A DNA stretch of 64,000 nucleotides from Azorinus chamasolen. Taxonomy: Eukaryota > Mollusca > Bivalvia > Cardiida > Solecurtidae. A program made the translations under genes and the position numbers. This document shows positions 13,041 to 61,800 of the stretch, piece after piece (the first letter of the stretch is position 1; each line of letters begins with the position of its first letter). The DNA is taken from positions 50,427,090 to 50,491,089 of the forward strand of contig OY755237.1 in assembly GCA_963576725.1 (NCBI GenBank), read 5' to 3'. The notes under the pieces were generated by a model. That model saw only the letters and a program-made list of their open reading frames with translations, searched no databases and was not told the origin of the DNA.

Positions 13041-13515
13041 TAAATGGCAATTGTGATATGATATATGCAGAAATGAATCCAATAAAAAATAAGGACATAT
13101 GTTGTTGTTAGATGTTAGCCTTAAGCCTGTTGCTGGCGGATGAATGATTATTTTTGCAAACACTTTGGGTCCAGATGATATGTTGAGTAACTCGATCAGT
13201 TTCTTATCAAGATCCAAACTGTTTGGCACCTTGCTTGCATATAGCGGGTGAAAATTTGTGTAAAAAAACAACAACTTTCAACCAAAAATGTGCACCCATA
13301 ATTAAAATTAATCCGATCAAACATGCCGTTAAATTGAGTGATACATCATCAAAAGAAATAACCAATTAAATAATTAGTACAAACTGTCGCGGCTATAAAT
13401 ATCTCTGATGACACTAGTGCAAACAGGTACCACCATTAACAGTAATTTGCTATTACAACATAATTCAAACAGCGATTTATTTTGTTTGTTTGATACTTAT
13501 AAAGGTTATATTTTA

Positions 13516-14991
13516 ATTACGTTCGATAGTGTCTGGAGAGATGGACTGTGGTTCAAGTTACGCACCTACTCAGTCACTGGAAAGGTCTTCAACGTAATTT
13601 ATAACATGTATCAAAATATAAAATCGTGCGTTTTCAGTAATGGTGAAACAAGTGCTTTTTTCCCTTGTCAAACGGGAGTTCGGCAAGGGGAAAATCTGTC
13701 ACCTATGCTATTTTCACTCTTCCTTAACGACATGGAGTCACATTTATTGATGAACAACTGTAAAGGGATTCAACTTGATGACCCAGTAACTTCATTGCAA
13801 TGGCTGAAGCTTTTAATAATTTTATATGCCGATGACACTATTATCCTTTCCGATGATGAAAACGATTTTCAATCATGCCTTAATGCTTTCAATGAATACT
13901 GCAAGGACTGGAAGTTAACTATAAATGCAACTAAAACAAAAATCATAGTTTTTGATAAAAGAAACATTAAAGATTTTCATTTCTGTATAGGAGAACATAA
14001 AATAGAAATAACTAAACAGTATAAATATTTAGGTGTTCTATTCTCCAGTACTAGATCTTTCCTTAGTGCCAGGAAACACAACGTTGAACAAGCGAAGAAA
14101 GCAATGCATTTATTGTATACCCGAAGTAAAAACTTAGACCTTCCGATAGATCTTACTTTAAAATTATTTGACCACACCATTGTCCCAATTTTAACATATG
14201 GATGTGAAATATGGGGGTATGAAAATTTAGACATTATAGAACAAGTCCACAGAGATTTCTTACGAAAGATAACACACACGAGAAAGAGTACACCTAGTTA
14301 CATGTTATATGGAGAACTGGGAAGGTACCCTCTCTCTGTGACAATTCAATGTAGAATGATTGGTTTCTGGAACAAAATCATAACTGGCAAAAATGAAAAA
14401 TATGTTAAGAAAACTTATACGTACATGTTAAAAGACCAAAATCATAATTACAAATGGACAGACAAAATAAGAGAAATACTCAACCTAACTGGCTACTCCT
14501 ATCTGTGGAATACTCAAACAAATGTAACTTCCAAAAACATTAAATGCCTTATAAAACAATCACTTTTTGATCAGAATATCCAGAACTGGAACGGCCTAAT
14601 GTCACTCTCAAACAAAGGTAAATTCTATAAATCATACAAATCAAGATTTGAATTAGAGCCATATTTAAAGTTTCTGGATTTTCACAAAGCATTGCCAATT
14701 CTAAAATTACGGACTGCTAACCATTACTCCCCAATAGAAACCGGAAGATGGCTAAGTATACCAACCGAAGATAGGATGTGTAAAATGTGCGATGACAATA
14801 AGATTGGAGATGAAAGGCATTACCTATTTGAATGTAAACGTTTTTCGGACGACAGACATACCATAATTCACTTAATAAATAATAGCTTAAACAATACTCA
14901 GATCAACAGGCTATTCAATATTTCTTCAAAAACAGATTTGCTACTACTTAGCCAATTTGCTTCAAAATTAATAAAGCAAGTGCCCCGGTAA
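13516..14991 (+). mobile_element. Non-LTR retrotransposon reverse transcriptase, 5'- and 3'-truncated but open
   Basis: An uninterrupted frame of about 490 codons starts inside the reverse transcriptase at FDSVWRDGLWFKL, the palm motif A. It continues with GVRQGENLSPMLFSLFLND (motif B), LYADDTIILSD (catalytic YADD), KYLGVLFS (thumb) and VPILTYGCEIWG. It closes with a C-terminal zinc-knuckle region RMCKMCDDNKIGDERHYLFE and a Cys. The frame nominally extends to 13408, but those codons do not resemble the family, so the element edge is placed near 13516. The endonuclease and 3' untranslated tail are missing. Lack of any stop in 490 codons suggests recent arrival. The clade (CR1/L2- or RTE-like) cannot be fixed by eye. 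Confidence 0.8.
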
Positions 14992-18469: not shown

Positions 18470-21013
18470 TTTACTCTAATCTCAGTGGAGCAACCGTCTT
18501 TTGTCACAGAAGGAGAAATTGAATGGGTCAAGGTCAAGACGAAAAGCAGTAGAGATTTGCTGATAGGCTCCTTCTACATGCCACACAGACACCAACAACA
18601 TTTGGCAGAACTTGAGAAATCACTGCAACAGATACAAAGTAGTAACAAAGATATTATTCTAGCAGGAGACTTTAACTGCCCGGACATTAACTGGAACACC
18701 GGGATAGCTAAAGGTCCTGAGAGATATACAGCAAGGTCTTTTCGATGTCACTGGTGCAAGCTCATTGACACAGATCCATGAATCACCTACTAGAGAGAGC
18801 AACCTTTTAGATTTGGTGTTTGTCACTAACCCGACACTCGTTAAGTCATCTACGAATGTCCCAGGCATATCCGACCATGACATCGTAATAACAGACACAG
18901 AGACGAAAGTCCAACACCAAAAGTGTGCACCCAGAAAGTGTTACATTTACAGCAAAGCCGATTGGGACTCGATTAAAGTAGACCTAGCGGATACGGAAAC
19001 TGCCATTGGAAACCAGTGCAGAATTGGAGGAAATGTTCAAAGTATGTGGGAAACCTTTAAGGAACACCTGTTTGAAACAATGGACAGAAACATACCGAGT
19101 AAAGAAATAAAATCTAGGAATAGTACACCTTGGATAAGAAGAAAGGAACGGAAAATGATTAGAAAGAAACTAAGACTGTATAACCAGGCCCGCAAAACAA
19201 ACAAATGGTCAAACTACAGGGCATTTCAAAAAGAATGTAAAAGGCACATGCGTAAAGCAGAGCAAGACTACATAAACTCAGACATCATAGAAGGTTTGGA
19301 AAATAAGAACACAAAACCGTTCTGGAAATATGTAAAATCTAAACGGCAAGATGCAGGAGGCATTGTTCCTCTAAAAGAAGGGGCATCACTGGTATCAGAC
19401 AGTAAAGGGAAGGCAGAAATCCTCTTGAAACAGTTTAAATCAGTTTTCACGAAATCTGCAAGCCAAGACCTACCCCACATGGAAGCAAAAACAGAAAATA
19501 CAGTCAAACCGATAGAAATTGACAGAAACGGCTTGCAGAAATTACTGGAAAGGGTAAACCCCTCTAAAGCTTCAGGCCCTGACAACATCCCAAACCGCAT
19601 TCTAAAAAACGCACATTTGGCCCCAATCCTGAAACTCATAATGCAGGCCTCACTAGACACTGGTGAACTGATTGGAGAGCAGCAAATGTCTCCAGTATTT
19701 TCAAGAAAGGAGATAAGCATCTTGCCGAAAACTACAGGCCGGTTTCTTTGACATCTGTTGTCTGCAAAATTTTAGAACACATAATATGCAGACACCTAAT
19801 GACACACTTAGAAAGTAACAAAATCCTTACAAGTCTGAACCATGGATTCCGAACAGGCTACTCCTGTGAGACACAGCTCTTAACTACGCTGAACGACTTC
19901 CTCCAGGAACATGACAGGGGGCACCAAACGGATGTCGCTATTCTAGATTTTTCTAAAGCATTCGACACGGTACCGCATGACAAACTGTTACACAAGTTAC
20001 ACCGCTATGGAATTCAAGGGAGCATCCACACCTGGCTGACCAACTTCCTAACAACCCGCAAAATGCGAACCATAGTAGAAGGTGGACAGTCAGACGAGAC
20101 ATCTGTGGACTCCGGAGTCCCACAAGGAACTGTTCTTGGACCGATCCTGTTTCTCTGTCACATAAATGACCTCCCAGATTGTGTAAAATCGTCAGTACGT
20201 CTATTTGCAGATGACTGCCTGCTTTACCGAACCATCAAGAGCAGTACGGATCAGGAGAAACTTCAATCAGACCTAATCAACCTAGAAACATGGGCGAACA
20301 AATGGGGTATGAGATTCAATGCGAAAAAGTTATGTAAAAAGTAAAAAAGGCCAACGCCACACTTGGATTTCTAAGACGGAACTTAAGACACGTTCCCGAA
20401 AAATGCAGGAAAACGGCATACATATCAGTAGTAAGATCTATAATGGAGTATGGAGCAACCATCTGGAATCCTTACCTCAAAGGGGACATAGACAGGTTGG
20501 AGAAAATTCAAAACCGTGCGGTCAGATTCATTAAAAGGAACTATAAGGACAGAGAGATGGGAGCAGTAACAAGAATGAGAGAACAACTAGATTTAGAGAC
20601 CCTTGAAGACAGGAGACTGAGCCTTCGTTTGGTACTTATGTATAAGGTAGTAGGGGGATTAGTACCAGCTCTACCGAAATCCACTTTCACGAAACCGTCA
20701 AAACCGAGGAGAAACGTCAAGGCAACAAGATTTAAAGACTACAGTGCGAGCAATATAATAGAAAATCAAGTATGTAACAACACAAAAGGGCTGGCAGTCC
20801 CAAATAGCAAGACCCTTCAATACAGGAATTCATTCTTTGTAGACACTACGATACAGTGGAATAGACTACCGAACAGCATCGTGCATGCTGATTCCGTAGA
20901 GGCTTTCAAGACAGCCCTACGAGATCATCGCCAGAAATAAAGGCGACTCTTCTCACCCGTCGTGTAAAAGCCTTATAGGGTTCTACGACGTATATATATA
21001 CAGATACAGATAA
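18470..21013 (+). mobile_element. Non-LTR retrotransposon (CR1/Jockey-like), truncated and frame-broken
   Basis: Three reading frames must be joined. 18485 to about 18720 encodes the apurinic-endonuclease-like domain C-terminal half (KDIILAGDFNCPDINW). About 18722-19700 continues it with ESNLLDLVFVTNPTL, SDHDIV and a basic linker. About 19701-20330 encodes the reverse transcriptase: LAENYRPVSLTSVVCK, DFSKAFDTVPHDKLLHKL, SGVPQGTVLGPILFL and LFADDCLLY. The C-terminal part, 20344-20940, reads KKANATLGFLRRNLRHVPE, then WNPYLKGDIDRLEKIQNRAV and a stop. Between FNAKK and KKANATLG roughly 50 residues normally carrying the YLGV-type thumb motif are missing, an internal deletion. The 3' end is GTTCTACGACGTATATATA followed by ACAGATACAGATA tail units. 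The N-terminal endonuclease half is lost to 5' truncation. Confidence 0.85.
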
Positions 21014-33387: not shown

Positions 33388-36300
33388 GGACTGTATTTTT
33401 TCAGTAGCGGCTGTGTATTTTTACAGTAGTGGCTGTGTAGTTTTACAGTAGAGGCTATGTATTTTTACAGAGTGGCTGTGTAGTTTTACAGTAGCGGCTA
33501 TGTAGTTTTACAGTAGTGGCTGTGTAGTTTTACAGTAGTGGCTATGTAGTTTTACAGTAGTGGCTGTGTAGTTTTACAGAGTGGCTGTGTAGTTTTACAG
33601 TAGCGGCTATGTAGTTTTACAGTAGTGGCTGTGTAGTTTTACAGTAGAGGCTATGTATTTTTACAGTAGTGGCTGTGTAGTTTTACAGTAGCGGCTATGT
33701 AGTTTTACAGTAGAGGCTATGTAGTTTTACAGTAGAGGCTATGTATTTTTACAGTAGCGGCTATGTAGTTTTACAGGAGTGGCTGTGTAGTTTTACAGTA
33801 GCGGCTATGTAGTTTTACAGTAGTGGCTATGTAGTTTTACAGTAGCGGCTGTGTAGTTTTACAGTAGAGGCTATGTAGTTTTACAGTAGAGGCTATGTAG
33901 TTTTACAGTAGTGGCTGTGTAGTTTTACAGTAGATGCTATGTATTTTTACAGTAGTGGCTATGTAGTTTTACAGTAGTGGCTGTGTAGTTTTACAGTAGA
34001 AGCTATGTATTTTTACAGTAGCGGCTATGTAGTTTTACAGTAGAGGCTATGTATTTTTACAGAGTGGCTGTGTAGTTTTACAGAGTGGATGTGTAGTTTT
34101 ACAGTAGTGGCTGTGTAGTTTTACAGTAGTGGCTGTGTAGTTTTACAGAGTGGATGTGCAGTTTTACAGTAGCAAGTGTGTATTTTTACAGTAGCGGCTG
34201 TGTATTTTTGCAGTAGCGGCTATGTATTTTTACAGTAGCGGCTGTGTAGTTTTACAGTAGCGGCTATGTATTTTTACAGTAGTGGCTATGTAGTTTTACA
34301 GTAGAGGCTATGTATTTTTACAGAGTGGCTGAGTAGTTTTACAGTAGAGGCTATTTAGGTTTAAAGAAGTGGCTGTGTAGTTTTACAGTAGTGGCTGTGT
34401 AGTTTTACAGTAGCGGCTATGTATTTTTACAGAGTGGCCGAGTAGTTTTACAGTAGAGGCTATTTAGGTTTACAGTAGTGGCTGTGTAGTTGGCTGTGTA
34501 GTTTTACAGTAGTGGCTGTGTAGTTTTACAGTAGAGGCTATTTAGGTTTACAGTAGTGGCTGTGTAGTTTTACAGTAGTGGCTGTGTAGTTTTACAGTAG
34601 CGGCTATGTAGTTTTACAGTAGTGGCTGTGTAGTTTTACAGTAGCGGCTATGTATTTTTACAGAGTGGCTGTGTAGTTTTACAGTAGTGGCTGTGTAGTT
34701 TTACAGTAGTGGCTGTGTAGTTTTACAGTAGAGGCTATTTAGGTTTACAGTAGTGGCTGTGTAGTTTTACAGTAGTGGCTGTGTAGTTTTACAGTAGCGG
34801 CTATGTATTTTTACAGAGTGGCTGTGTAGTTTTACAGTAGTGGCTGTGTAGTTTTACAGTAGCGGCTATGTATTTTTACAGAGTGGCTGAGTAGTTTTAC
34901 AGTAGAGGCTATTTAGGTTTACAGTAGTGGCTGTGTAGTTTTACAGTAGCGGCTATGTATTTTTACAGAGTGGCTGTGTAGTTTTACAGTATCGGCTATG
35001 TAGTTTTACAGTAGTGGCTGTGTAGATTTACAGTAGTGGCTGTGTAGATTTACAGTAGCGGTTGTGCAGTTTTACAGTAGCGGCTGTGCAGTTTTACAGT
35101 ATCGGCTGTGTGTATTTTTATAGTATCGGCTGCGTATTTTTTTTAACACAGTTTCGGTTATGTAGTTTTACAGCAGCGGCTATGTAGTTTTTATAGAGGT
35201 TATGTAATTTCACAGTAGCAGTTGTGAACTTTTTAATGTAATTTTACAGTAGCAGCTATGTAATCTTACTGTAGCGGCTGTGCAGTTTTACAGTAGCGGC
35301 TGTGCAGTTTTACAGTAGCGGCTGTGCAGTTTTACAGTAGCGGCTGTGTAGTTTTACAGTAGCGACTGTGTAGTTTTACATTAGCGGCTGTGCAGTTTTA
35401 CAGTAGCGGCTGTGTAGTTTTACAGTAGTGGCTGAGTAGTTTTACAGTAGAGGCTATTTAGGTTTACAGTAGTGGCTGTGTAGTTTTACAGTAGTGGCTG
35501 TGTAGTTTTACAGTAGTGGCTGAGTAGTTTTACAGTAGAGGCTATTTAGGTTTACAGTAGTGGCTGTGTAGTTTTACAGTAGTGGCTGTGTAGTTTTACA
35601 GTAGCGGCTATGTATTTTTACAGAGTGGCTGAGTAGTTTTACAGTAGAGGCTATTTAGGTTTACAGTAGTGGCTGTGTAGTTTTACAGTAGTGGCTGCGT
35701 AGTTTTACAGTAGTGGCTGTGTAGTTTTACAGTAGAGGCTATTTAGGTTTACAGTAGTGGCTGTGTAGTTTTACAGTAGTGGCTGTGTAGTTTTACAGTA
35801 GCGGCTATGTATTTTTACAGAGTGGCTGTGTAGTTTTACAGTAGTGGCTGTGTCGTTTTACAGTAGTGGCTGTGTAGTTTTACAGTAGTGGCTGTGTAGT
35901 TTTACAGTAGTGGCTGTGTAGTTTTACAGTAGAGGCTATTTAGGTTTACAGTAGTGGCTGTGTAGTTTTACAGTAGTGGCTGTGTAGTTTTACAGTAGCG
36001 GCTATGTATTTTTACAGAGTGGCTGTGTAGTTTTACAGTAGTGGCTGTGTAGTTTTACAGTAGCGGCTATGTATTTTTACAGAGTGGCTGAGTAGTTTTA
36101 CAGTAGAGGCTATTTAGGTTTACAGTAGTGGCTGTGTAGTTTTACAGTAGCGACTATGTATTTTTACAGAGTGGCTGTGTAGTTTTACAGTATCGGCTAT
36201 GTAGTTTTACAGTAGTGGCTGTGTAGATTTACAGTAGTGGCTGTGTAGATTTACAGTAGCGGTTGTGCAGTTTTACAGTAGCGGCTGTGCAGTTTTACAG

Positions 36301-38765
36301 TATCGGCTGTGTGTATTTTTATAGTATCGGCTGTGTATTTTTTTTAACACAGTATCGGTTATGTAGTTTTACAGCAGCGGCTACGTAGTTTTTATAGAGG
36401 TTATGTAATTTCACAGTAGCAGTTGTGAACTTTTTAATGTAATTTTACAGTAGCAGCTATGTAATCTTACTGTAGCGGCTGTGCAGTTTTACAGTAGCGG
36501 CTGTGCAGTTTTACAGTAGCGGCTGTGTAGTTTTACAGTAGCGACTGTGTAGTTTTACAGTAGCGGCTGTGCAGTTTTACAGTAGCGGCTGTGTAGTTTT
36601 ACAGTAGTGGCTGTGGAGTTTTACAGAGTGGCTGTGTAGTTTTACAGTAGAGGCTGTGTAGTTTTACAGTAGCGGCTGTGTAGTTTTACAGTAGTGGCTG
36701 TGTAGTTTTACAGTAGCGGCTGTGCAGTTTTACAGTAGTGGCTGTGGAGTTTTACAGAGTGGCTGAGTAGTTTTACAGTAGAGGCTATTTAGGTTTACAG
36801 TAGTGGCTGTGCAGTTTTACAGTAGTGGCTGTGTAGTTTTACAGTAGAGGCTGTGTAGTTTTACAGTAGCGGCTGTGTAGTTTTACAGAGTGGCTGTGTA
36901 GTTTTACAGTAGCGGCTGTGTAGTTTTACAGTAGTGGCTGTGTAGATTTACAGTAGCGGCTATGTAGTTTTACAGTAGAGGCTGTGTAGTTTTACAGTAG
37001 TGGCTATTTAGTTTTTACAGTAGCAGCTCTATTTTTTTTACAGTAGTGGCTATGTAGTTTTACAGTAGCGGCTGTGCAGTTTTACAGTAGTGGCTGAGTA
37101 GTTTTACAGTAGCGGCTGTGTAGTTTTACAGTACTGGCTGTGTAGTTTTACAGTAGTGGCTGTGTAGTTTTACAGTAGTGGCTGTGCAGTTTTACAGTAG
37201 TGGCTGTGTAGTTTTACAGTAGCGGCTGTGTAGTTTTACAGTAGCGGCTGTGTAGTTTTACAGTAGTGGCTGTGTAGTTTTACAGTAGTGGCTGTGTAGT
37301 TTTACAGTAGTGGCTGTGCAGTTTTACAGTAGTGGCTGTGCAGTTTTACAGTAGTGGCTGTGTAGTTTTACAGTAGCGGCTGTGCAGTTTTACAGTAGTG
37401 GCTGAGTAGTTATACAGTAGCGGCTGTGTAGTTTTACAGTAGTGGCTGTGTAGTTTTACAGTAGCGGCTGTGTAGTTTTACAGTAGTGGCTGTGCAGTTT
37501 TACAGTAGTGGCTGTGTAGTTTTACAGTAGCGGCTGTGTAGTTTTACAGTAGTGGCTGTGCAGTTTTACAGTAGTGGCTGTGTAGTTTTACAGTAGCGGC
37601 TGTGTAGTTTTACAGTAGTGGCTATTTAGTTTTTACAGTAGCAGCTCTATATTTTTTTTACAGTAATGGCTATGTAGTTTTACAGTAGCGGCTGTGCAGT
37701 TTTACAGTAGTGGCTGTGGAGTTTTACAGTAGTGGCTGAGTAGTTTTACAGTAGCGGCTGTGGAGTTTTACACTAGCGGCTGTGGAGTTTTACAGAGTAG
37801 CTGTGGAGTTTTACAGAGTGGCTGAGTAGTTTTACAGTAGAGGCTATGTAGTTTTACAATATCGGCTGTGTAGTTTTACAGTAGCGGCTGTGTAGTTTTA
37901 CAGTAGTGGATGTGTAGTCTTACAGTAGCGGATGTGTAGTTTTAGAGTTGCGGCTATGTAGTTTTATAGAGGTTATGTAATTTTACAGTAGCAGTTGTGT
38001 ACCTTTTACAGTAGCAGCTATGTAGTTTTATTAGCGGCAATGTAATTGCTGTTTTACATTAGCGATTGTGTATTTTTACAATATCGACTATGTAGTTCTA
38101 CAGCAGCGACTGTGTGTTTTTATAGTAGTGTCTGTGTGGGTTTTACAGTAGCGGCTGTGTATTTTTACAGTAGCGGCTATGTAGTTTTACCGTAGAGGCT
38201 GTGTAGTTTTACAGTAGTGGCTATTTAGTTTTTACAGTAGCAGCTCTATATTTTTTACAGTAATGGCTATGTAGTTTTACAGTAGCGGCTGTGTATTTTT
38301 TACAGTAGCGGCTATGTAGTTTTACAATATCGGCTGTGTAGTTTTACAATATCGACTGTGTAGTTTTACAGTAGCGGCTGTGTAGTTTTACAGTAGCGGC
38401 TGTGTATTTTTGACAGTAGCGGCTGTGCAGTTTTACAGTAGCGGCTATGTAGTTTTATAGAGGTTATGTAATTTTACTTTATAGTAGCGGCTGTGTACTT
38501 TTTACAGTAGCGTCTATGTATTTTTATAGTAGCGGTGTGTTTTAACAGTAGCGGCTGTTTATTTTTATAGTAGCATCTGTGTATTTTTATAGTAGCTGCT
38601 GTATATTTTTACAGTAGCTGTTTTATGTATTTTTACAGTAGCAGTTTTTATGTATTTTTACAGTAGCTGTTGTGTATTTTTACAGTAGGTGTTGTGTAGT
38701 TTTACAATAGCGACTGTGTAGTTTTACAATAGCGGCTGTGTAGTTTTACAATAGCCGTTGCAACT
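33388..38765. repeat. Large minisatellite, 22-bp unit, about 240 copies
   Basis: The unit is GTAGTTTTACAGTAGTGGCT plus GT, 22 bp, with recurring variants: CGGCTGTG, AGGCTATG, a 20-bp form with ACAGAGTGGC, and GTAT or GCAG in place of GTAG. The array is interrupted only by small length changes, with a higher-order duplication inside (about 34870-35290 repeated at 36070-36490, offset about 1.2 kb). The 22-bp period and in-phase TAG exclude coding. Variation rises toward the right end (38000-38765). Confidence 0.95.
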
Positions 38766-40104: not shown

Positions 40105-40434
40105 CAGAAAATTCATATATTATAAACATATATTCAATGTGGATAGATGACTAACGCGGTTAGATTTCCATACCTATATTCAATAGGGATAGATGAATAA
40201 CGTGGTTAGATTTCCATACCGTTATTCAATAGGGATAGATGAATAACGTGGTTAGATTTCCATATCGTTATTCAATATGGATAAATGAATAAAGTGGTAT
40301 GATTTTGTTGCATATATTTCCTAAGGATATACAAATAACCTGATACGATATCTGTCTAACTTCAATAAGAATAAACGAATAGCCTGATTCGACTAATTTA
40401 CCTATTTAAAAGGATCGTATGCCTATGTTTAACC
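40105..40434. repeat. 45-46-bp tandem array, segment 1
   Basis: Units of the type TATTCAATAGGGATAGATGA, then ATAACGTGGTTAGATTTCCA and TACC. Four good copies and several decayed ones. The same unit resumes at 41335, 42121, 48680 and 50781 after insertions. Confidence 0.75.
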
Positions 40435-45639: not shown

Positions 45640-47830
45640 ACACAGAAAACACCAAAAGACACACAAGAACCAGGGACAAACGTTCCACAACATGAACAAA
45701 CCACAAGCACAAAGACGCAAGGCAAACAAAAGGAAGGGTGACAAAGAGAGTACCGCCTTGGCACGGTCAGCAGCAAAAACACCACTGGGGGTTTAAACCG
45801 GTTTACGGACGTCCTAATCTCACACTTCTCTCAAAGTCACCCTAGCTTTACAAATATTGTAAATAAAGGTATCCCCGCTGGACTTACCCACAACATAGAC
45901 GACGGTGAACACAGGACAACATGTAAAACATAGCATAATAACTGTGACAATCCGTCAAATATGTACTCAATGACTTTGCTGAAGTCAGAGCACCTGCAGG
46001 TAAGCCGTTAAGGGCACGACAGGGAAAAAGTAATACATGAGTCTGGTAAGCTCCTCCTGTATCCAAGTTTAAGAGTATACCATCATAGAGTACTACCCTC
46101 GGCCTGTCATCGCGCAAGCAAAGAGGGAAGCGTAGCTACCGACTGTAAAAGGGTCGATAACCAAACATGCAGTGTGTTGCAATATAATAGGATCATAACC
46201 TTTCTTTTTAAATGTTTTAATGCGTTTTATAAACAAATCATGAAAATGGATATGACCCCGAATTTTCCTAAGTTTGTAAATAACATCCCCATAAAATTCT
46301 GGTTGAGAAATGCCTTGTCGCAGTAACGTCCGTAGATTGCAATTATATTTACTAATGAGAGGTAAATTTCGATAATAAAATTTAGAAAAGGTTTTCCGAA
46401 GTTTGTGATATCTGTAACCTTGCTTAAGAAGTTTATCAGTTATAACTAAATTACGTCTGTTAAAATCTGCAAGCAAAGAACAGGCTCGGGCAAACCTAAT
46501 AAGTTGAGAAATATAAACCCCATAAGATGTAGAACGTGGCACATCCCCATCTAGAAAAGGATAATTAACAATTTTAAAATTAAAATCTTCTCTTTTATCG
46601 TATACTTTGGACGAAACTTTATCATTTGTAATTGAAAGATTCAAATCTAAAAATGAAGCATTAATGTCAGATTGATTTAGCTTTGTTTAAAGACAGTTCT
46701 TTTGGGTAGATTGAAGAAACCATAGTATCAAAATAAGGATTATCTAAATTCAAAATATCGTCTAAATACCTTGAAGTTTTATTAAAAGCATTAACAATAT
46801 CGGTCTGTGTATCAGGTTTTAAGCTAAGCATAAAATCCCTCTCGTAGCAATACAAAAACAAATCTGCAACAAGAGGGGCACAATTTGTACCCATGGGTAT
46901 ACCAACAACTTGACGATATATGGTATCCCCATAACGCACAAATATATTATCTAAAAGAAAGGTAAGAGATCTACAAACATCAAGGCAAGTCCACATTGTG
47001 TAATGTTCAACTTCTGAATTCGAAAAGAATGAACGTTGAACATTACAAGCAATGAACATTTTGTTTTCTCTGGCAAATGTTTTTTCTATTAATTTAATAA
47101 GTTTATCCTTTATAAGATGGTGAGGTAGAGTAGTATAGAGTGTAGAGAAATCATAAGAGCTCAGTAAAGAAATGTTATACTGTTCATTTTCAAGTTTTGT
47201 TAAAACATCATTTGAATTTTTTATGGACCAAAAAACATTAATACCAGAATTTTCATATATTTTATCACAGTAGCGTTTAACATGTTCTTTGATCGTAGTA
47301 AGACAGGACGTCAAAAGTATAGATAATTTAGTAGTGGTACAACAGCTAGAGTTGGCAATAAAACGCGACTTATAAGGGTTTTTGTGTAGTTTCGGAATCC
47401 AGTACAAAGTAGAAAGTTTATGTTGTTTTATGTTAGGACCAGACTTAAAATTATTGCACATTTTTACATGTTCCGAGACTATATCTTTTTCAGGTGTTTG
47501 AACTGTTATATAAGTTTTTGAATCAGTTAGCTCCTTCTTTAAAACATCAACATAATACAATCTTCAAATAATGATTACATTGTTTGATGCCTTGTCAGCA
47601 GGAACAAGAACATAATCTGAATGAAAATTAGAAATGTTTTTTCTTCAAGTAGCGAAATGTAACTCTAGGTCGAGGTGGTAAAAGATGGTAATTTGATTTG
47701 TAAAAAGTTATTCGCGTATCAATAATATCGAAAATACATTTCTTCCAATCCGAAAGGGCATTAAGTTCACCTCGTCCTTTTCTCTCTACACCATGCGAGC
47801 CGCCTGGCTCTGCTGGCTCTTGATATTAAT
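45640..47830 (-). mobile_element. Naiad-type Penelope-like element, copy 2, 5'-truncated
   Basis: Minus strand. About 47800-47570 encodes a degraded segment ending NFHSDYVLVPADKASNNV and III, then TGA at 47566-47564, then RLYYVDVLKKEL. The reverse transcriptase runs open from 47560 to 46667 with YWIPKLHKNPYKSRFIANS, SSYDFSTLYTTLPH (motif A), VGIPMGTNCAPLVADLFLY (motif B) and SRYLDDILN (catalytic DD). One frameshift near 46675 leads to the C-terminal part 46644-46093 (DGDVPRSTSYGVYISQLIRF, then GYDPIILQHTACLV and a stop). The GIY-YIG endonuclease and CxC linker are missing by truncation. 46092-45640 is the 3' untranslated part with AAACCGGTTTAAACCCCCAG. The TGA stands where the family normally has Cys (VPADKA..NN...VC). 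Confidence 0.85.
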
Positions 47831-48146: not shown

Positions 48147-48268
48147 TATTAGTTACACGGTTATTTGACAGGGTGTACGGGCTGGTATGACCGGGTTAGA
48201 TCCCGTATTTACGTGGTCTAACCCGGTCATACCAGCCCGTACACCCTGACAAATTACCGTATAACGAC
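48147..48268. repeat. Long palindrome A, second copy
   Basis: Same arms as 42335-42476 (GGGTGTACGGGCTGGTATGA and complement) with a shorter centre (CCCGTATTTACGTGG). Confidence 0.9.
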
Positions 48269-48679: not shown

Positions 48680-48760
48680 ATGTACATGGCGTAAGTACTT
48701 ACGATTTCCATACATAAATACATGTACATGACGTAAGTACTTACGATTTCCATACCTATA
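48680..48760. repeat. 45-46-bp tandem array, segment 4
   Basis: Two units (TACATGACGTAAGTACTTAC, GATTTCCATACATAA) ending CCATACCTATA, where the miniature LTR element inserted. Confidence 0.8.
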
Positions 48761-48791
48761 TGTAGCCGGGTAGAGATTATGGTGAAACAAG

Positions 48792-50000
48792 GGCATGTTG
48801 TATTGCTATGCAAGACATGAGTCCCCCACCGGACTGAAAAAAACCCTCCACTGTCCCCACCCCACCCACCCATGGTGTGGTTGACCATGGTATATACATG
48901 ACCACCTGAACGGTATTAGTACCTACTTTCATACATTGAATCAGTAAATAAAAAGTTATTGTCCCAACAAGAAAATATGAAAAAGGGGAGTAACTCCAAA
49001 AATATTAATGCTAGAGTTATTGCCTTTGTGCATGACACTACACCTCATCATGCTTGTTCCATATGAGAAGTTTCAAATCAATTAAACCAGTACATAAAGA
49101 GTTATTAACTGGATAAGAAAATATGAAAAAGGGAAAGAACTCCAAAAATATAGATGCTAGAGTTATGGCCCTTGTGCATGACACTACCCCTCATCATGAT
49201 TGTTCCATATGTGAAGTTTCAAATCAATTGAACCAGTAGATAAAGAGTTATTATCTGGACAAAAAAAATATGTAAAAGGGGAATATCTCCAAAAATATTG
49301 ATGCTAGAGTTATGGCCCTTGTGCATGACACTACTCCTCATCATGCTTCTACAATGTGTGAAGTTATAATGAATTTGGCCTAACTTTTTATGAGATATGG
49401 CCCGGACACGTAGCGTGACAGACGGACTGACAAGAAAATATGAAAAATGGAAAGAACTCCAAAAATATTGATGCTAGAGTTATGGCCCTTGTGCATGACA
49501 CTACCCCTCATCATGATTGTTCCATATGTGAAGTTTCAAATCAATTGAACCAGTAGGTAAAGAGTTATTGTCCGGACAAAAAAAATATGTAAAAGGGGAA
49601 TATCTCCAAAAATATTGATGCTAGAGTTATGGCCCTTGTGCATGACACTACTCCTCATCATGCTTCTACAATGTGTGAAGTTATAATGAATTTGGCCTAA
49701 CTCTTTATGAGATATGGCCCGGACACGAAGCGTGACAGACGGACTGACAAGAAAATATGAAAAAGGGGAAGAACTCCAAAAATATTGATGCTAGAGTTAT
49801 GGCCCTTGTGCATGACACTACTCCTCATCATGGTTCTACAATGTGTGAAGTTATAATGAATTTGGCCTAACTTTGTAAGAGATATGGCCCGGACAAGAAG
49901 CGTGACAGACGGACAGACAGACGGACGGACAGACAGACGGACAGACGGAATCGAGCAAACCTATAGTCCCCCAACCGGTAACCGGTGGGGGACTAATAAG
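48792..50000. mobile_element. TIR element with tandem core, inserted in the 5' LTR
   Basis: GAGTCCCCCACCGG near 48819 and CCGGTGGGGGACT near 49982 are inverted ends. An AACAAG/AATAAG pair may be the target duplication. The core repeats a unit of about 143 bp (AACTCCAAAAATATTGATGC, GAGTTATGGCCCTTGTGCAT, GACACTACCCCTCATCATG). A larger period of about 317 bp (TTCTACAATGTGTGAAG near 49346 and 49663, and GGTTCTACAATG near 49832) shows local duplication. The right flank of the core is a GACGGACAGACAG run. Confidence 0.8.
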
Positions 50001-50019
50001 TTGATAGGCTTTACTGTGT

Positions 50020-50092
50020 GGTTTGGTAGCTCAGTCGGTAGAGTGTTGGCATGGTAAGCCAGATGCCCAGGGTTCGAATCCCAGTCGAGTCA
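50020..50092 (+). tRNA. tRNA-like sequence (Thr GGT type) inside the 5' LTR
   Basis: 73 bases fold as a standard cloverleaf: acceptor GGTTTGG/TCGAGTC (with wobbles), TA spacer, D stem GCTC/GAGT with loop AGTCGGTA, anticodon stem TTGGC/GCCAG with loop ATGGTAA (anticodon GGT), variable ATGCC, T arm CAGGG-TTCGAAT-CCCAG with one A-A mismatch, discriminator A. Box A (TAGCTCAGTCGGTAGAG) and box B (GGTTCGAATCC) are consensus Pol III promoter elements, and a T5 terminator follows at 50097-50101. GGT anticodons are unusual for nuclear tRNA-Thr, and the sequence is part of a retroelement, so a functional decoding tRNA is unlikely. A tRNA-derived Pol III unit is the better description. Confidence 0.65.
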
Positions 50093-50096
50093 CAAC

Positions 50097-50101
50097 TTTT
50101 T
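50097..50101 (+). terminator. Pol III T5 terminator after the LTR tRNA-like unit
   Basis: TTTTT four bases after the discriminator base. The same T5 occurs in the 3' LTR (50764-50768). Confidence 0.5.
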
Positions 50102-50115
50102 CACCATGTTACATT

Positions 50116-50128
50116 TGGCGCCCAACGT
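50116..50128 (+). promoter_or_regulatory. Primer binding site, tRNA-Lys type
   Basis: TGGCGCCCAACGT, 13 bases, is complementary to the metazoan tRNA-Lys 3' end (ACGTTGGGCG plus CCA). It lies immediately inside the 5' LTR, as required for LTR-element reverse transcription. Confidence 0.75.
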
Positions 50129-50258
50129 AAATAACCCATTAGTTGATTTATATGAAGATAGTATGAATATTATATGAAGATAATGTGTAATAATAAGAAA
50201 CTCGTGGAGTGTTCTTTGAGTAAGAATTCGGGACGAATTCTTGTGTAGAGGGTGTGTG

Positions 50259-50780
50259 TGTAGCCGGGTAGAGATTATGGTGAAATAAGTTGATAGGCTT
50301 TACTGTGTGGCTTGGTAGCTCAGTCGGTAGAGTGTTGGCATGGTCAAAGGTGCCCGACGCATGCTTAAACTAACCCATGGACCCCCCCCCCCCCACCCCC
50401 CAAAAAAATGTGATCGACGTATGTTAAACTAGCCTAAAACTATCTATTTGAACCTTAAACCACTCCGAAAAACAAAAAAACACGACCCGGAAAAATTTCC
50501 TTTCGGGTCTATATATGTATTGATATGTAGACCTGATAGGAAAAACATTTCCTGGTCGTGTTTTTCTTGTTTTTTCAGAGTGGTTTAAGGTTCAAATAGA
50601 TAGTTTTATGCTAGTTTTACATACTTCGATCACATTTTTATTTATTTATTTATTTTCTTTTTTTTGGGAGGGGGGGGGGCGTGGATGAGTCCAAGCATGC
50701 GTCGGGCACCTTTGGGCATGGTAAGCCAGAGGCCCTGTGTTCGAGTCCCAGTAGAGTCACAACTTTTTCACCATGTTACA
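50259..50780 (+). repeat. 3' LTR of the miniature element, split by a hAT-like hairpin
   Basis: LTR bases lie at 50259-50344 and 50723-50780 (86 + 58 = 144). It starts within a TGTGTG run that may be a small expansion. It carries the same tRNA-like unit with variants (GGCTTGG acceptor, CTGTG-TTCGAGT-CCCAG T arm). Confidence 0.8.
50345..50714. mobile_element. hAT-like foldback element in the tRNA-like anticodon loop
   Basis: GGCATGGT is duplicated exactly on both sides (50337-50344, 50715-50722), an 8-bp target duplication. Ends CAAAGGTGCCCGACGCATGC and GCATGCGTCGGGCACCTTTG are perfect inverted copies and fit the hAT terminal rule. The inverted arms extend over most of the 370 bp (TTTGAACCTTAAACCACTC facing GAGTGGTTTAAGGTTCAAA), with a C run on the left arm and a G run on the right. 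Confidence 0.9.
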
Positions 50781-51165
50781 TATATTCAATGGGGGTGAAT
50801 CAATAACGTGATACAAGTTTCATACCTATATATTTATTCGAAAGGGATAAATGAGTGACATGTGGTACGATTGATTTTCTCAATTCAATAAGCTGATACG
50901 CTTTATTTTACATATATTCAATAAGGATAAATGAAACAATGTGATATGAACACTTTATCTATTCAATAAGGGTAATATGTTGAATAACGTGGTATAAATT
51001 ATGTACCTATATTCAAAGAGGATTAATGAATACCTTGGTACGATTTCTTTGCCTTTGTTCAGAAAGGATTAATGAATAACCTGGAAGGATTTCTTTACCT
51101 ATATTCAATAAAGATATAAATGAATAACGTGGTACGATTCTGTACCCATATTCTGTATTATCTGA
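50781..51165. repeat. 45-46-bp tandem array, segment 5
   Basis: Decayed units: TATTCAATGGGGGTGAATCA, ATAACGTGATACAAGTTTCA, TATTCAATAAGGATAAATGA and others, continuing the array broken at 48760. Confidence 0.65.
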
Positions 51166-52626: not shown

Positions 52627-53613
52627 ATGTCCCGTCTATGTACTGCGGCATCAAGCAAACTGTATCGTTCGTCAGGGATGCGACTGGTTCTGGTGATACC
52701 TTTGTTATCGTGTATGATTATCATGAGCAATGTTTGTTACATGGCATTCTCTAGTACACCCTCAGGCGTACACAGTCATAGTGTCACAAACCGTGAGATG
52801 ACCGCTGCCCATCCATATCGCAGTTCCCACGAAGAGGCTCGTCGTTTACCAAAGTGTATCATACTTGGTTTTCGTAAGGCTGGAACACGTGCGTTGCTTT
52901 CATATTTGAATGTTCATCCTGACATTCAAACTGCAAAGGATGAGATCGGTTTCTTTTCTGATGACGAAAAGTACGAAAAAGGTTTGGAGTATTACAGAGA
53001 GCAGATGCCTCTCTCCTATGAACACCAGATTACCATAGAGAAGTCGCCATTTTACGTTGAAAGCACAGTCGCTCCAGAGCGTATATATCGAATGAATAGT
53101 TCTATACTTCTGATCATCATCGTTCGGGATCCAATCATTAGACTTGTGTCTGACTATGTTCACTCTAGAGAAAACCGCATAAGAGACGGGCGTAAAACAG
53201 AACCTTTTGAGGCGACGATTTGCAATTCAAAGGGAGACATAAACACTCTCAGCTCAAATGTTCGGAGATCAATGTACTCGATGCACTTCCCTCGTTGGAC
53301 AAAATTGTTTTCGACGAAGCAGATACATATTGTTGATGGGGACAATCTAATTGTAAATCCTTATAAGGAGGTGTTTGAAGTAGAAACATTTCTAGGCATA
53401 GAGCACAACATTACTAAACACAACTTCTACTTCAACAAAGATAAAGGTTTTTATTGTTTCATGTCTATGGAAAACAATAGTTTATGTCTAGGTAAATCCA
53501 AAGGTAGGGAAAACCCCAATGTCGATCCTTTAGTTCTAAGTGAACTGAAAAGCTATTACAGTGACAAAAATGAAGATTTTTTCAAACTTGTGAATAGAAC
53601 CTTTAACTGGTAA
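52627..53613 (+). CDS. HS3ST: Heparan sulfate glucosamine 3-O-sulfotransferase-like
   Basis: A 328-residue type II Golgi enzyme expected to transfer sulfate from PAPS to the 3-OH of glucosamine in heparan sulfate. Residues about 19-40 are a membrane anchor (LVLVIPLLSCMIIM). The sulfotransferase domain starts at 77: GFRKAGTRALL (81-91, 5'-phosphosulfate loop), KDEIGFF with Glu106 at the position of the catalytic base, KSPFY (139-143), VRDPIIRLVSDY (166-177, 3'-phosphate binding), HIVDGD (234-239). Cys277 and Cys287 match the family disulfide and are followed by the SKGRENP substrate-site segment (291-297). Sequons at 157, 261, 283 and 323. Length equals the single-domain HS3ST1 type. I start at ATG 52627; the frame extends three codons upstream to a TTG, but an AG acceptor (ATAATTTTCAG, 52600-52610) implies that a 5' untranslated exon is spliced on just upstream. 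All coding sequence is in one exon, as in vertebrate HS3ST1. Confidence 0.92.
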   Translation: MSRLCTAASSKLYRSSGMRLVLVIPLLSCMIIMSNVCYMAFSSTPSGVHSHSVTNREMTAAHPYRSSHEEARRLPKCIILGFRKAGTRALLSYLNVHPDIQTAKDEIGFFSDDEKYEKGLEYYREQMPLSYEHQITIEKSPFYVESTVAPERIYRMNSSILLIIIVRDPIIRLVSDYVHSRENRIRDGRKTEPFEATICNSKGDINTLSSNVRRSMYSMHFPRWTKLFSTKQIHIVDGDNLIVNPYKEVFEVETFLGIEHNITKHNFYFNKDKGFYCFMSMENNSLCLGKSKGRENPNVDPLVLSELKSYYSDKNEDFFKLVNRTFNW

Positions 53614-56830: not shown

Positions 56831-59274
56831 CACATTATGGAACCCCTCTACTAATAAATAAATTATGAAGTCACCTACGAGCAAATTTCAAACATTAAAA
56901 CTACATTCTACGACATCTGTGCAAATTCCACAAAATAGTAATTTTAGATCGTTCCAACCTTCATTATTCACTAAACATTTATTCTGCAAAATTGTTTCAT
57001 CTACCTTCTGTTTCTATTAATTACTGTTTTCACAATGGCCCAAAAGTGGTACTTTCTCCGTTAAATAAATCAATTCAACATAATACTGTAGTTAATATGA
57101 TTCAAAATGTATCCAACCATTGATAGGTGCAATGCCAAGAGGTGTGTGTGCTGTAAGCATATATCTTGCAATTCTACCATTAAATCTACATTAAATCTAC
57201 AAATAATGGTAGAGTTTTTACCACAAAATTTACATCAAATATTAACTGTAAAACTTCTCATATGATTTACGTTTTAACATGAAATGCACCAATTTGTGGA
57301 ATACAATATGTAGGACAAACTGGACGCTCATTAAAAACTAGATTTCGTGAGCATACATATCAATGCCGTAAAATAAAGTAAACAAAAATCTATACCAGCA
57401 TTTTCGTAAATCGGGTCATTCATTTTAAAGATATTACAGTTCAGCCAGTTGAACATCTTGTTTATGATAATAATTCTACAACAGCATTAAATCTAAAGCT
57501 AGATTTACGGCAGAACTCAAATGGATATAAAATTACAGACACATTTTCCTTTAGGCCTAAATGACAACATACATGTATATCAAACTGGAAATATTTCTAA
57601 AGACCCAAATATTGATATATTTTACATTTGCTCAATTAGAAAACGAAAGACTAGATCACATGGTGTACGTAAAAACTGTAATATCAAACGCAAAGCTCGC
57701 CTGAAACGTCTGTTTTAGATTTACACAATATACGTCTGCATCCTGGTAAACAATACTAAACATACTATGCCCTCTATGTTGTTTTGTCTATTTTTTCCAT
57801 AAGAGACATTGACATAGAAGTGATCTAACGAAAAGATCCTTTGTTTAACACAGCTTCTTTCATTCAGAACTACACTCGGCATGTTCTTCGACCACACGTT
57901 GATTCAGTGTCTGACCACAACATATTTTTTGAAAATTCCATTGGTATAGATTTTATCGATCTACAATCAATATTTCGCGATAAAAACGTAATTAAGACCA
58001 TCCCAGCCCATTTCAAACATTTAGAATCTCCTATTATCTGCTACAAGTACAAAATACCTATTAGGAATACTATTTTTAATTATAATAAAATTGTATCGGA
58101 CCTTAATATTGTAATTAATACTCCTGTTAGTTGAAATTGTAATTCCTCTACGTTCTGTTACTCCGAGGCTGGTCATGTTATTACAGGCAATTTTGACATT
58201 ATCGAAGACAAGCGTCTTCGTACTTTATTACTTAAGGGACCTAAGTACAGACTACCTTCTTCGATAGATTTCGAAATCTGCTGTAGCAAACTTATAGAAT
58301 CTTTGTTAGACTTCAGTGCCAAATGGTGTCGCCGAGAACATGCAGACAATAATGCCCTTACAAAATGGATAAAACAAATTTCAAATACATGTATAATGGA
58401 TACACGTAGATCTATATCGTTTTACAAATCTAACATTCACCTTCTTCTCCCTAAACCTAGGACATGAGTTCGCTTATTAAAAAATAGTATACAAGAATTT
58501 CACTCTCTAAATACGTGTTTGTTCCAGCTGATAAAGCGTCAAACAATGTAATTATCGTTTGACGACTTTATTGTGTGGCTGTTTAAAACAAGAACTCACT
58601 AAGACAAAGTCATATATTGTGGTCTCTAAATCTGAAAATGACATAATATCTGAACATGTTAATAAATGTAAACAGTTCAATGCTGATATATTAATCACAC
58701 ATCATAAACTTCCGACAATGTACTGGATACCTAAACTCCATAAAATGCCATATAAATCACGCTTCATAGCAAACTCGGTCTCATGCACGACAACCACACT
58801 ATCCAAACTAATTACACCGTGTCTTACAGCGGTCAAAGAACATGTCAAGCGTTACTGTGATAAAGCTTATGAGAATTCAGGAATTAACCTTTTTAAAAAA
58901 AACTCCAATGAGCTTTTAACTAAATTAAAAATCAGGCAACACCAAGCTAACACTATAAGCGCATACGATTTTTCTACACTTTATACCACATTACCACAGG
59001 ATCTAATAAAGATCAAACTTACAAACCGTATAAATAAAAAATTTGCTAGAGAAAAAGTATCATTTATTGCCTGTAATTCTAGATATGCGTTCTTTACCAA
59101 TGACATAACAAGTAAATATACATGTACCTCGTGGACATGTTTAGATCTTTGTGACGCAATTACGTTTCTGTTAGACAATATATTTGTTCGGTTTGGTAAT
59201 TCTGTATATCGCCAGGTCATTGGTATTCCCATGGGAACCAACTGTGCTCCTTTAATTGCAGAATTGTTTTTATA

Positions 59275-60942
59275 CGCCCACCTAATAAAGGTGGTCGTAT
59301 ATTGTCGTGGCCCTGTCCATCCGTCCGTTCGTTCGTCCGTCAACATTTTGTTTGTCCGCTGTTTTCTCGGAAAACTATTTGACAGATATTAATGAAACTT
59401 CACACAAATGTTTAATGCATCAAGATCTGAATCTGAGTTGATTCTGAGGTTCTTTGGATTTGTCTTTTCGGAGTTATGGCCCTTGTCCTTAAAAAATAAT
59501 GCAAATAGTTTGTTCGCAGTTTTCTTGGAAAACTATTTGAGAGATATTAATGAAACTTCACACAAATGTTTAATGCATCAAGATCTGAAGCTGAGTCGAT
59601 TCTGAGGTTCATTGGATTTGTCATTTCGGAGTTATGGCCCTTGTACTTAAAACATAATGCAAATAGTTTGTTCGCTGTTTTCTGGGAAAACTATTTGAGA
59701 GATATTAATGAAACTTCACATAAATGTTTGATGCATCAAGATCTGAAGCTGAGTTGATTCTGAGGATCATTTGATTTTTCGTTTCAGAGTTATTGCCCTT
59801 GTCCTTAAAAAAAATAATGCAAATACATGCAAATACTTAATAGTTTGTTCACTGTTTTTTAGGAAAACTATTTGAGAGATATTAATGAAACTTCACACAA
59901 ATGTTTAATGCATCAAGATCTAAAGCTGAATCGATTCTGAGGTTCATTTAATTTGTCGTTTCGGAGTTATGGCCATTTTACTTTAAAAATAATGCAAATA
60001 TATGCATATAGTTTGTCCGCTGTTTTCTGGTCAAACTGTTTGACAGATATTAATGAAACTTTACACACATGTTTAATGCACCAAGACCTGAAAGAAGCTA
60101 AGTCAATTCTGAGGTTCATTTGATTTGTCGTTTCGGAGTTATGGCCCTTGCACTTAAAAAAAATAATGCAAATCTATGCAAATATGAGGATGGCCATAAC
60201 TTTTTCATTTGAAATGATATTTACTTCAATTTTTTTATATGGTTAAATCTTAATATGAATTTTCACATATATTGCGGGGTTTTTGATATGTCATTTTATT
60301 CTAAAGTTATGGTCCTTGAACTTTGTGTGTTTGTTGCTTTATTTGTCGGTCAACTTTTAGTTTGTCTGTTGTTTTCTGGGAAAATTATTAAAATGATATA
60401 AACGAAACTTAATAATTTCTGAAAGGAGGTGATCCCCCGAGAGCAAATATTGCAACACAAAAAGAGAAAATTGCAGACTCGGTTTTATTGAGTCTGTTCA
60501 TGAACAGTAATTGAAAGTGCAACACTGCTCACGCCCCCTAGCACCGGCTTAAGCGGTATTCAATTTTCAGAACAAGAAGTACTGAAATTCATGATCTCGA
60601 AGGATCAGAAGGTATAACAACACTGAAAATAGTTTTCCTAAACAGTGTTTTTTAATACAAATGTTTTAAGCAACAAAATCTGAAGCTGAGTTTATTTTGA
60701 GGTTCATTCAGTTTGTCTTTACAGAGTTATGGCCGTTGCACTTTACAAAAATCTGCAAATATGAGGATTAGCTGTAACTTTTTTATTTAATAAGATATTC
60801 ACTTCATTTTTTTTATAAATAGTATCTCCTTAATATGGAAATCAAGATCTGAAGCACAGATTAGAAAATGTCAACACTTATAAGGCATGTTGAATCAGAG
60901 AAAATTTGCAAGTGGGCGTATTATGTACCGTATGCGGTACTC
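59275..60942. mobile_element. Tandem-core element inserted in the Naiad RT
   Basis: TTGTTTTTATA (59264) and TTGTTTGTAT (60943) flank it as an imperfect target duplication inside the codons for LFLYCYE. ATACGCCCAC at the left faces GTGGGCGTAT (60912-60921) at the right. The core has about five units of about 158 bp (GTTTAATGCATCAAGATCTG, TTTCGGAGTTATGGCCCTTG, CTGTTTTCTGGGAAAACTAT). It begins with a CCGTCCGTTCGTTCGTCCGT run. The two 60-odd-codon frames at 59408-59757 are repeats. Confidence 0.75.
60412..60652. mobile_element. Nested insertion at TTAA within the tandem-core element
   Basis: Compared with the inverted copy near 63560, which reads AACTTAACACAAATG after complementing, this copy has AAACTTAA, about 230 extra bases (TAATTTCTGAAAGGAGG ... 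CAGTGTTTT), then TTAATACAAATG. A TTAA target duplication fits; inverted ends are not evident. Confidence 0.5.
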
Positions 60943-61259: not shown

Positions 61260-61800
61260 GCCCCCCCCCCCATATTTACATGGCGGAGACTAATATTGTT
61301 TTCGTGAGCGTTGTCTGTCTGTCTGTCTGTCCGTCACACTTTTTGTCCGGACGATAACTTCAATATGCCTGATGCCAGTTGATTGAAACTTCATATATGG
61401 AAAGAGCATAATGAGAGGAAAGGTCATGTACAAGGTCCATAAATCTGGCTTAACTAATATAGGAGTTATTGTCCCATGTAAAAAAATCACACTTTTTTTG
61501 TCCGAACGATAACTCCTATATGGCTCATTCCATTGGATTGAAACTTCATATATGGAAAAATCATGACGAGAGAAAGTGTCATGCACAAGTTCCATAACTC
61601 TGGCTTATCTAATATTGGAGTTATTGCCCTTTGTAAAAAAAAATCACATTTTTTGTCAGGACGATAAATCCTATATGGCACATGCCATTGGAGTGAAACT
61701 TCATACATGGAAAGATCATGATAAGAGAAAATGTCATGCATAAGATTCTTAACTCGGGCTTCAATAAATTTAGAGTTCTTGCCCCTTGTACATTTGTTTA
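61260..61800. repeat. Tandem-core repeat, about 153-bp units
   Basis: Starts with a C run and GTCTGTCTGTCTGTCTGTCC. Units contain TTTTTGTCCGGACGATAACT, TTGAAACTTCATATATGGAA and AGGAGTTATTGTCCCATGTA. About 3.5 units. It truncates the Naiad at 61258. Confidence 0.75.

What the first reader, a model, noticed from the sequence alone, without database searches (positions are those of the whole stretch)
48761..50780. A miniature LTR retroelement whose LTRs each contain a complete tRNA-like Pol III unit
Seen: two 144-bp repeats with TG...CA ends (31+113 and 86+58 bases after removing insertions), exact TATA duplication in a tandem repeat whose empty form is known from neighbouring units, TGGCGCCCAACGT just inside the 5' LTR, 145-bp non-coding interior, and in each LTR a 73-base cloverleaf with consensus box A, box B and a T5 stop. 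Known: plant Cassandra TRIMs carry 5S rRNA sequence in their LTRs, and tRNA-headed SINEs are common. I know of no established family with a tRNA in a TRIM LTR. Inference: this may be an animal analogue of Cassandra, transcribed by Pol III, or the route by which a SINE was captured by LTRs.
Basis: partly seen in the sequence, partly recalled or inferred. Interest (0 to 1): 0.9.

Follow-up and report, generated by a model that had tools for sequence, protein, structure and literature searches.

The report
tRNA-bearing mini LTR element (Helenus)
The sequence holds a worn copy of a tiny non-coding retrotransposon whose end repeats each carry a tRNA-like unit; it is well made out, but it belongs to a kind already published in 2024 under the name Helenus.

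Summary
Two 144-bp LTRs (7 substitutions apart) with TG...CA ends flank a 145-bp non-coding interior. A 4-bp TATA duplication brackets the copy, and its empty form is seen in neighbouring array units. A 13-base tRNA-Lys primer-binding site lies 2 bases inside the 5' LTR. Each LTR carries a tRNA-like unit and a T5, and each was later split by an unrelated insertion (1203 and 370 bp).

Corrections: in the 3' LTR box B has one mismatch and the acceptor stem one broken pair; the polypurine tract is poor.

Kojima 2024 (PMC10886601) describes this kind, Helenus: TRIMs with tRNA-derived sequence in their LTRs. It reports 51 families in pteriomorphian bivalves, 4-bp duplications in animals, tRNA-Lys among bivalve primers, and seven bivalve families able to encode tRNA-Thr. 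The element fits, with the polypurine tract inconclusive.

Copy number, solo LTRs, host species and identity with a published family were not tested or not resolved; the genome search did not complete in 7 tries. Verdict: a member of a known kind.

The parts
48757..48760 (.). target-site duplication TATA, left copy
   Evidence: sequence
48761..48791 (+). 5' LTR, positions 1-31 (starts TGTAGCC)
   Evidence: 31 bases matching 50259-50289, one difference
48792..50000 (.). later insertion in the 5' LTR, 1203 bp (48792-49994) plus second copy of its flank AATAAG 49995-50000 (first copy AACAAG); largely a 146/170-bp tandem repeat, with inverted AGTCCCCCACCGG / CCGGTGGGGGACT at 48820 and 49982
50001..50113 (+). 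5' LTR, positions 32-144 (ends GTTACA)
50020..50092 (+). tRNA-like unit of the 5' LTR, tRNA-Thr(GGT) by anticodon; box A 50027-50038 TAGCTCAGTCGG, box B 50071-50081 GGTTCGAATCC
   Evidence: ARAGORN; Rfam RF00005 50.7 bits; box positions
50097..50101 (+). T5, candidate Pol III stop in the 5' LTR
50114..50258 (+). internal region, 145 bp, non-coding
50116..50128 (+). primer-binding site TGGCGCCCAACGT, 2 bases after the LTR end; equals the first 13 bases of the 18-base PBS that two papers give as complementary to tRNA-Lys (tRNA-Lys1,2 in the first)
   Evidence: only match in the window at up to 2 mismatches; tRNA from passages of PMC8775094 and PMC4261875
50222..50242 (+). perfect 9-bp hairpin with 3-nt loop near the 3' end of the interior
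   Evidence: such a hairpin in 56 of 20000 mononucleotide shuffles; z -2.73 for 50215-50250
50247..50258 (+). weak polypurine tract AGAGGG followed by TGTGTG
   Evidence: 75% purine over 12 bases
50259..50344 (+). 3' LTR, positions 1-86; box A at 50316
50345..50722 (.). later insertion in the 3' LTR: 370-bp element (50345-50714) with 22-bp terminal inverted repeats CAAAGGTGCCCGACGCATGCTT and 8-bp duplication GGCATGGT (50337-50344 / 50715-50722); hAT-like MITE by its 8-bp duplication (superfamily recalled)
50723..50780 (+). 3' LTR, positions 87-144; box B 50738-50748 with one mismatch; T5 50764-50768
50781..50784 (.). target-site duplication TATA, right copy

Best explanation
It is one old, broken copy of a Helenus-type TRIM: a short non-coding LTR retrotransposon whose LTRs carry a tRNA-derived Pol III promoter. 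Shown by sequence: LTRs, 4-bp target duplication, PBS, tRNA-like unit with box A and box B, T5, two later insertions. Inferred cycle: Pol III starts at the tRNA-like unit of the 5' LTR, reads through the first T5 and the interior, and stops at the T5 of the 3' LTR. The RNA then has roughly 85 matching bases at both ends (the R region). A cellular tRNA-Lys primes at the PBS, and a Gypsy-type element supplies reverse transcriptase and integrase in trans. Integration made the 4-bp TATA duplication in the local tandem array. Transcripts that stop at the first T5 would be short tRNA-like RNAs without the PBS and could not be templates.
For: LTR pair 137 of 144 identical, exact TATA duplication and matching empty site. 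PBS unique in the window and placed 2 bases inside the LTR; it equals 13 of the 18 bases published as the tRNA-Lys PBS. tRNA-like unit found by two programs. Published Helenus features match: tRNA-like LTR, 4-bp target duplication in animals, tRNA-Lys PBS in some bivalve families, tRNA-Thr reading in seven bivalve families, total length 311-1263 bp against 433 here as the sum of its parts (PMC10886601). The tRNA-like unit is not complementary to its own PBS (6 of 13 positions, three of them from the added CCA), as Kojima also reports for Helenus.
Against: Polypurine tract is poor. Box B of the 3' LTR is altered and its acceptor stem has a broken pair; the T stem has one in both LTRs. Six of the 7 LTR differences fall in the tRNA-like unit (73 of 144 positions), so nothing here shows that it is being kept intact at this site. 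T runs of 4 or more occur only as the T5 of each LTR, but that is not unusual: of 2000 shuffles each, 49% of interior shuffles have none and 86% of 5' LTR shuffles have one or none, so there is no sign of selection against early Pol III stops. RNA folding alone does not give the cloverleaf as its best structure (z -0.47). No second copy was seen: none in the window, and the genome search did not complete.
Confidence: 0.93

Rival explanations
1. A rival on mechanism only, within Helenus: the full-length RNA is made by Pol II or by read-through of neighbouring transcription; the tRNA-like unit is a SINE remnant fixed in the LTR by chance and only makes short dead-end RNAs.
For: The T5 of the 5' LTR lies upstream of the PBS, so a Pol III RNA that stops there has no PBS. 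Kojima states that Pol III activity of Helenus is not shown by experiment.
Against: The 5' LTR keeps consensus box A and box B. [quoted passage not shown] U3 here is only about 50 bases; I saw no promoter motif in it by eye (not computed).
Confidence: 0.3
2. Two tRNA-headed SINE copies that landed near each other, not LTRs.
For: Each unit carries a tRNA-like part and is about SINE length.
Against: Both units have TG...CA ends, the TATA duplication brackets the pair and not each unit, the PBS sits 2 bases inside the first unit, and there is no A-rich or short-repeat tail.
Confidence: 0.03
3. An ordinary tRNA gene plus a pseudogene copy with chance repeats around them.
For: ARAGORN and Rfam call a full tRNA at 50020.
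Against: The repeated unit is 144 bp and extends 50 bases before and 21 bases after the tRNA-like part with 1 difference outside it. Anticodon GGT for Thr is not a usual nuclear tRNA of animals (recalled).
Confidence: 0.02

Closest known systems
Helenus (Kojima 2024, PMC10886601)
   Same: TRIM with tRNA-derived sequence in both LTRs, box A and B kept, PBS for the 3' end of a cellular tRNA (tRNA-Lys is one of six listed for bivalves), 4-bp duplications in animals, 311-1263 bp; seven bivalve families can encode tRNA-Thr.
   Different: No difference in type was found; the PPT here is poor. Whether it equals one of the 51 published bivalve families, or comes from a host outside the listed species, is not known.
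Cassandra (plant TRIM with 5S rRNA in LTR; passages of PMC7215508, and as told in PMC10886601)
   Same: Small-RNA gene with Pol III promoter and terminator inside a TRIM LTR.
   Different: 5S rRNA instead of tRNA, plants. Here a tRNA match and no 5S match.
Ajax (nemertean TRIM with 5S promoter part; PMC10886601)
   Same: TRIM with a proposed Pol III promoter, 421 or 434 bp.
   Different: 5S-derived, 5-bp duplications.
biv-TRIM (Satovic 2019, PMC6934838)
   Same: TRIM of bivalves; inverted repeats of 9-10 bp in the inner domain of several species.
   Different: Terminal repeats 202-218 bp, inner domain 77-80 bp, no clear PBS; no tRNA-like unit in the repeats is mentioned in the parts that I read.

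Membership tests
Helenus | two LTRs around a short interior without protein-coding capacity; published lengths 311-1263 bp | tested here: met
   144 + 145 + 144 bp; an interior of 145 bp leaves no room for a retroelement protein
Helenus | tRNA-derived sequence inside the LTRs | tested here: met
   for the 5' LTR; for the 3' LTR, on its joined pieces
Helenus | box A with TRGCY...YGG and box B with GGTTC | tested here: met
   met in the 5' LTR (TAGCTCAGTCGG, GGTTCGAATCC); in the 3' LTR box A is met and box B is TGTTC, one change
Helenus | PBS just inside the 5' LTR, complementary to a cellular tRNA other than the LTR's own unit | tested here: met
   13-base PBS at 50116, equal to 13 of 18 bases of the published tRNA-Lys PBS; only 6 of 13 positions fit the own unit. 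Not held against a tRNA gene of this host
Helenus | polypurine tract before the 3' LTR | tested here: inconclusive
   AGAGGG then TGTGTG
Helenus | 4-bp target-site duplications in animals | tested here: met
   TATA on both sides and matching empty site
Helenus | dispersed copies and solo LTRs in the genome | not testable with these tools
Helenus | sequence match to a published family consensus | not tested
Helenus | Pol III transcription (proposed by Kojima, not proven) | not testable with these tools
   needs RNA data
Cassandra | 5S rRNA sequence in the LTR | tested here: not met
   Rfam finds tRNA and no 5S in the window
biv-TRIM | terminal repeats 202-218 bp, inner domain 77-80 bp, PPT GGGGAGA in most | tested here: not met
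   144 and 145 bp; AGAGGGTGTGTG
tRNA-headed SINE | single unit with 3' tail and duplication around each unit | tested here: not met
   in this copy the duplication brackets the LTR pair, no tail; other copies not seen

The most novel reading that the evidence does not exclude
A Helenus family not yet catalogued, from a host outside the pteriomorphian bivalves listed by Kojima, whose LTR holds a whole Pol III gene (start, box A, box B, T5). It would yield two products from one promoter: an abundant short tRNA-like RNA and a rare read-through template whose R region is the tRNA-like unit itself.
Probability: 0.25. Interest if true: 0.45.

Novelty: new member of a known kind. Interest (0 to 1): 0.25.

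Why it matters
It is an independent find of a Helenus-type element. Its target duplication in a tandem array with known empty units makes the LTR reading firm for a single copy. It also raises a testable question that I did not find addressed in the parts of the Helenus paper that I read (there 'terminator' occurs once, about Cassandra, and 'TTTT' not at all): how a Pol III RNA gets past the T5 of the first LTR. Finally, it shows how such LTRs can be called as tRNA genes, here as tRNA-Thr(GGT).

Tried and rejected
Relatives in public DNA. Six pattern scans of viral contigs: searches gave 0 matches. One search gave 10; in 10 of 10 ARAGORN calls an ordinary tRNA gene at the match (Lys, His or Met), followed by a chance TGGCGCC, and none has an LTR-like second copy (2 of the 10, L009 and L010, share two 15-mers with another place, which one search shows to be another tRNA gene). 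Two scans of genome contigs: one search gave 0; one search gave 5, all in records titled as bacteria and near the number that I expect by chance (about 7 by my own estimate, not a call); these 5 were not looked into.

Host: a sulfotransferase ORF (52627-53610) has 576 hits, 120 listed; its best named ones are Mactra (46%), Lottia (44%) and Mya (51% over 78% of the query), with unnamed hits among them. In a tree of 22 rows (the query and 21 named proteins that I picked by hand from the 120 listed) it sits on a long branch in no supported group. A reverse-transcriptase ORF gave, among 120 listed of 770 hits, organism names only for two bacterial MAG records, and a small ORF 8 hits without a species name. 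Host unresolved.

Selection against T4 runs as a sign of Pol III use: looked for, not significant. Self-priming by the LTR's own tRNA-like unit: rejected (6 of 13 positions). Conservation of the tRNA-like unit between the two LTRs: not seen, 6 of 7 changes lie in it.

Full report
What is there. The 5' LTR lies at 48761-48791 and 50001-50113, the 3' LTR at 50259-50344 and 50723-50780; both come to 144 bp and differ at 7 positions (4.9%; K2P 0.050), with no indel. The interior, 50114-50258, is 145 bp. TATA stands on both sides (48757-48760 and 50781-50784). When the two host flanks are joined they read ...CCATACCTATATTCAAT..., in agreement with units of the local 46-bp repeat at 40173, 51006 and 51098. 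So the empty site is known and the duplication is 4 bp.

The primer-binding site TGGCGCCCAACGT starts 2 bases after the LTR end, at 50116, and has no second match in the 64-kb window even with 2 mismatches. It equals the first 13 bases of the 18-base site that PMC8775094 gives as complementary to tRNA-Lys1,2 and PMC4261875 as the tRNA-Lys site of other mammalian foamy viruses (one passage of each seen). The polypurine tract is poor: AGAGGG followed by TGTGTG. A perfect 9-bp hairpin with a 3-base loop lies at 50222-50242; 56 of 20000 mononucleotide shuffles of the interior hold such a hairpin, and its stretch folds better than most shuffles (z -2.73).

The tRNA-like unit. ARAGORN calls tRNA-Thr(GGT) at 50020-50093 and Rfam's tRNA model matches 50020-50092 with 50.7 bits against a gathering score of 29. 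Box A and box B of the 5' LTR fit the consensus; its T stem has one broken pair. In the 3' LTR, box A is intact, box B has one mismatch, and the acceptor and T stems have one broken pair each; ARAGORN still calls tRNA-Thr(GGT) on the joined pieces. So 'consensus box A, box B in each LTR' is true of the 5' LTR and nearly true of the 3' LTR. T5 follows the unit in both LTRs. Single-strand RNA folding of the 5' unit does not give the cloverleaf as its best structure.

Later damage. The 5' LTR was split by 1203 bp flanked by AACAAG/AATAAG; the 3' LTR by a 370-bp element with 22-bp inverted ends and an exact 8-bp duplication GGCATGGT. With 7 LTR differences, this is an old copy, now broken. I give no age, since the mutation rate and host are unknown.

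What it is. Kojima 2024 (PMC10886601; I read parts 1 to 5 of 6 of the text, its figures-and-tables section and some passages) defines Helenus as TRIMs with tRNA-derived sequence in their LTRs. The paper reports 51 families from five orders of pteriomorphian bivalves, 4-bp duplications in animals, PBSs in bivalves for tRNA-Lys, His, Ile, Pro, Glu or Ser, similarity of animal PBS regions among autonomous elements to Gypsy only, seven bivalve families that can encode tRNA-Thr, and lengths of 311-1263 bp. The element here agrees with each of the features that I could test, the polypurine tract being inconclusive. Hence the kind is known. In the library searched, it is the only paper since 2024 that holds all of the terms Helenus, TRIM, tRNA and LTR, or Helenus, retrotransposon, bivalve and tRNA, and the only one of 4 with the word TRIMp3 that is about transposons (by title); searches list it first as well. 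biv-TRIM (PMC6934838; abstract, first of two parts of Results, and Discussion read) is a different bivalve TRIM with longer repeats and no clear PBS. A survey of bivalve transposons (PMC10294476, passages only) cites biv-TRIM and showed no tRNA-bearing LTR in those passages.

How it most likely works. Shown: the parts. Inferred: Pol III transcription from the tRNA-like unit, stop at the T5 of the 3' LTR, an R region of roughly 85 bases, tRNA-Lys priming, Gypsy proteins in trans. One point deserves notice: the T5 of the 5' LTR lies before the PBS, so a template RNA must read through it, and most Pol III transcripts might be short tRNA-like RNAs. I looked for a lack of other T runs as a trace of Pol III use and found none that is significant. 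As told in the Helenus paper, Cassandra transcripts start in the 5S part of the 5' LTR and end in that of the 3' LTR; [quoted passage not shown] The LTR's own tRNA-like unit does not fit the PBS (6 of 13 positions), so it is not its own primer.

What could not be done. No relative was found in viral contigs (six scans; the 10 matches are ordinary tRNA genes) or in genome contigs (two scans; 5 matches in bacterial records, not looked into). The host is not resolved: a sulfotransferase ORF points to an animal, with the best named hits in molluscs, but its place in a 22-row tree is unsupported. Whether the family is one of the published ones is not tested.

Verdict: observation confirmed, interpretation right in kind but not new; a Helenus-type element, confidence 0.93.

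Noticed in passing
window 50222-50242: Perfect 9-bp hairpin with 3-base loop just before the 3' LTR; a role in packaging or priming is only a guess. biv-TRIM inner domains of several species are also reported to hold 9-10-bp inverted repeats.
   Followed up: partly
window 50345-50714: 370-bp element with 22-bp inverted ends, 8-bp duplication GGCATGGT and a long internal inverted repeat; hAT-like MITE (label recalled).
   Followed up: partly
window 48792-49994: 1203-bp insertion with a 146/170-bp tandem repeat; inverted AGTCCCCCACCGG ends lie 28 bases inside its left end, so the real unit and its duplication are unclear.
   Followed up: no
window 61335-61790: 155-bp tandem repeat whose consensus looks, by eye, like the reverse complement of the repeat in the 5' LTR insertion.
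   Followed up: no
window 48152-48265: 56-bp inverted repeat, 91% complementary, 2-base loop; matches Rfam mir-3622 on both strands below its gathering score, more likely a MITE-like hairpin.
   Followed up: no
window 33392-38755: 5.4-kb satellite of 22-bp units with higher-order 44- and 66-bp periods.
   Followed up: no
window 52627-53610: Open single-exon ORF like heparan sulfate glucosamine 3-O-sulfotransferase, 44-51% identical to its three best named hits, all molluscs.
   Followed up: partly
window 13399-14991, 18708-20940, 46093-47563, 58535-59392: Reverse-transcriptase-like ORFs; listed relatives of the first carry Pfam PF00078, the others were judged by eye. Two hits of the first are in Candidatus Thiodiazotropha MAGs, perhaps DNA of a host clam binned with its symbiont.
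   Followed up: partly
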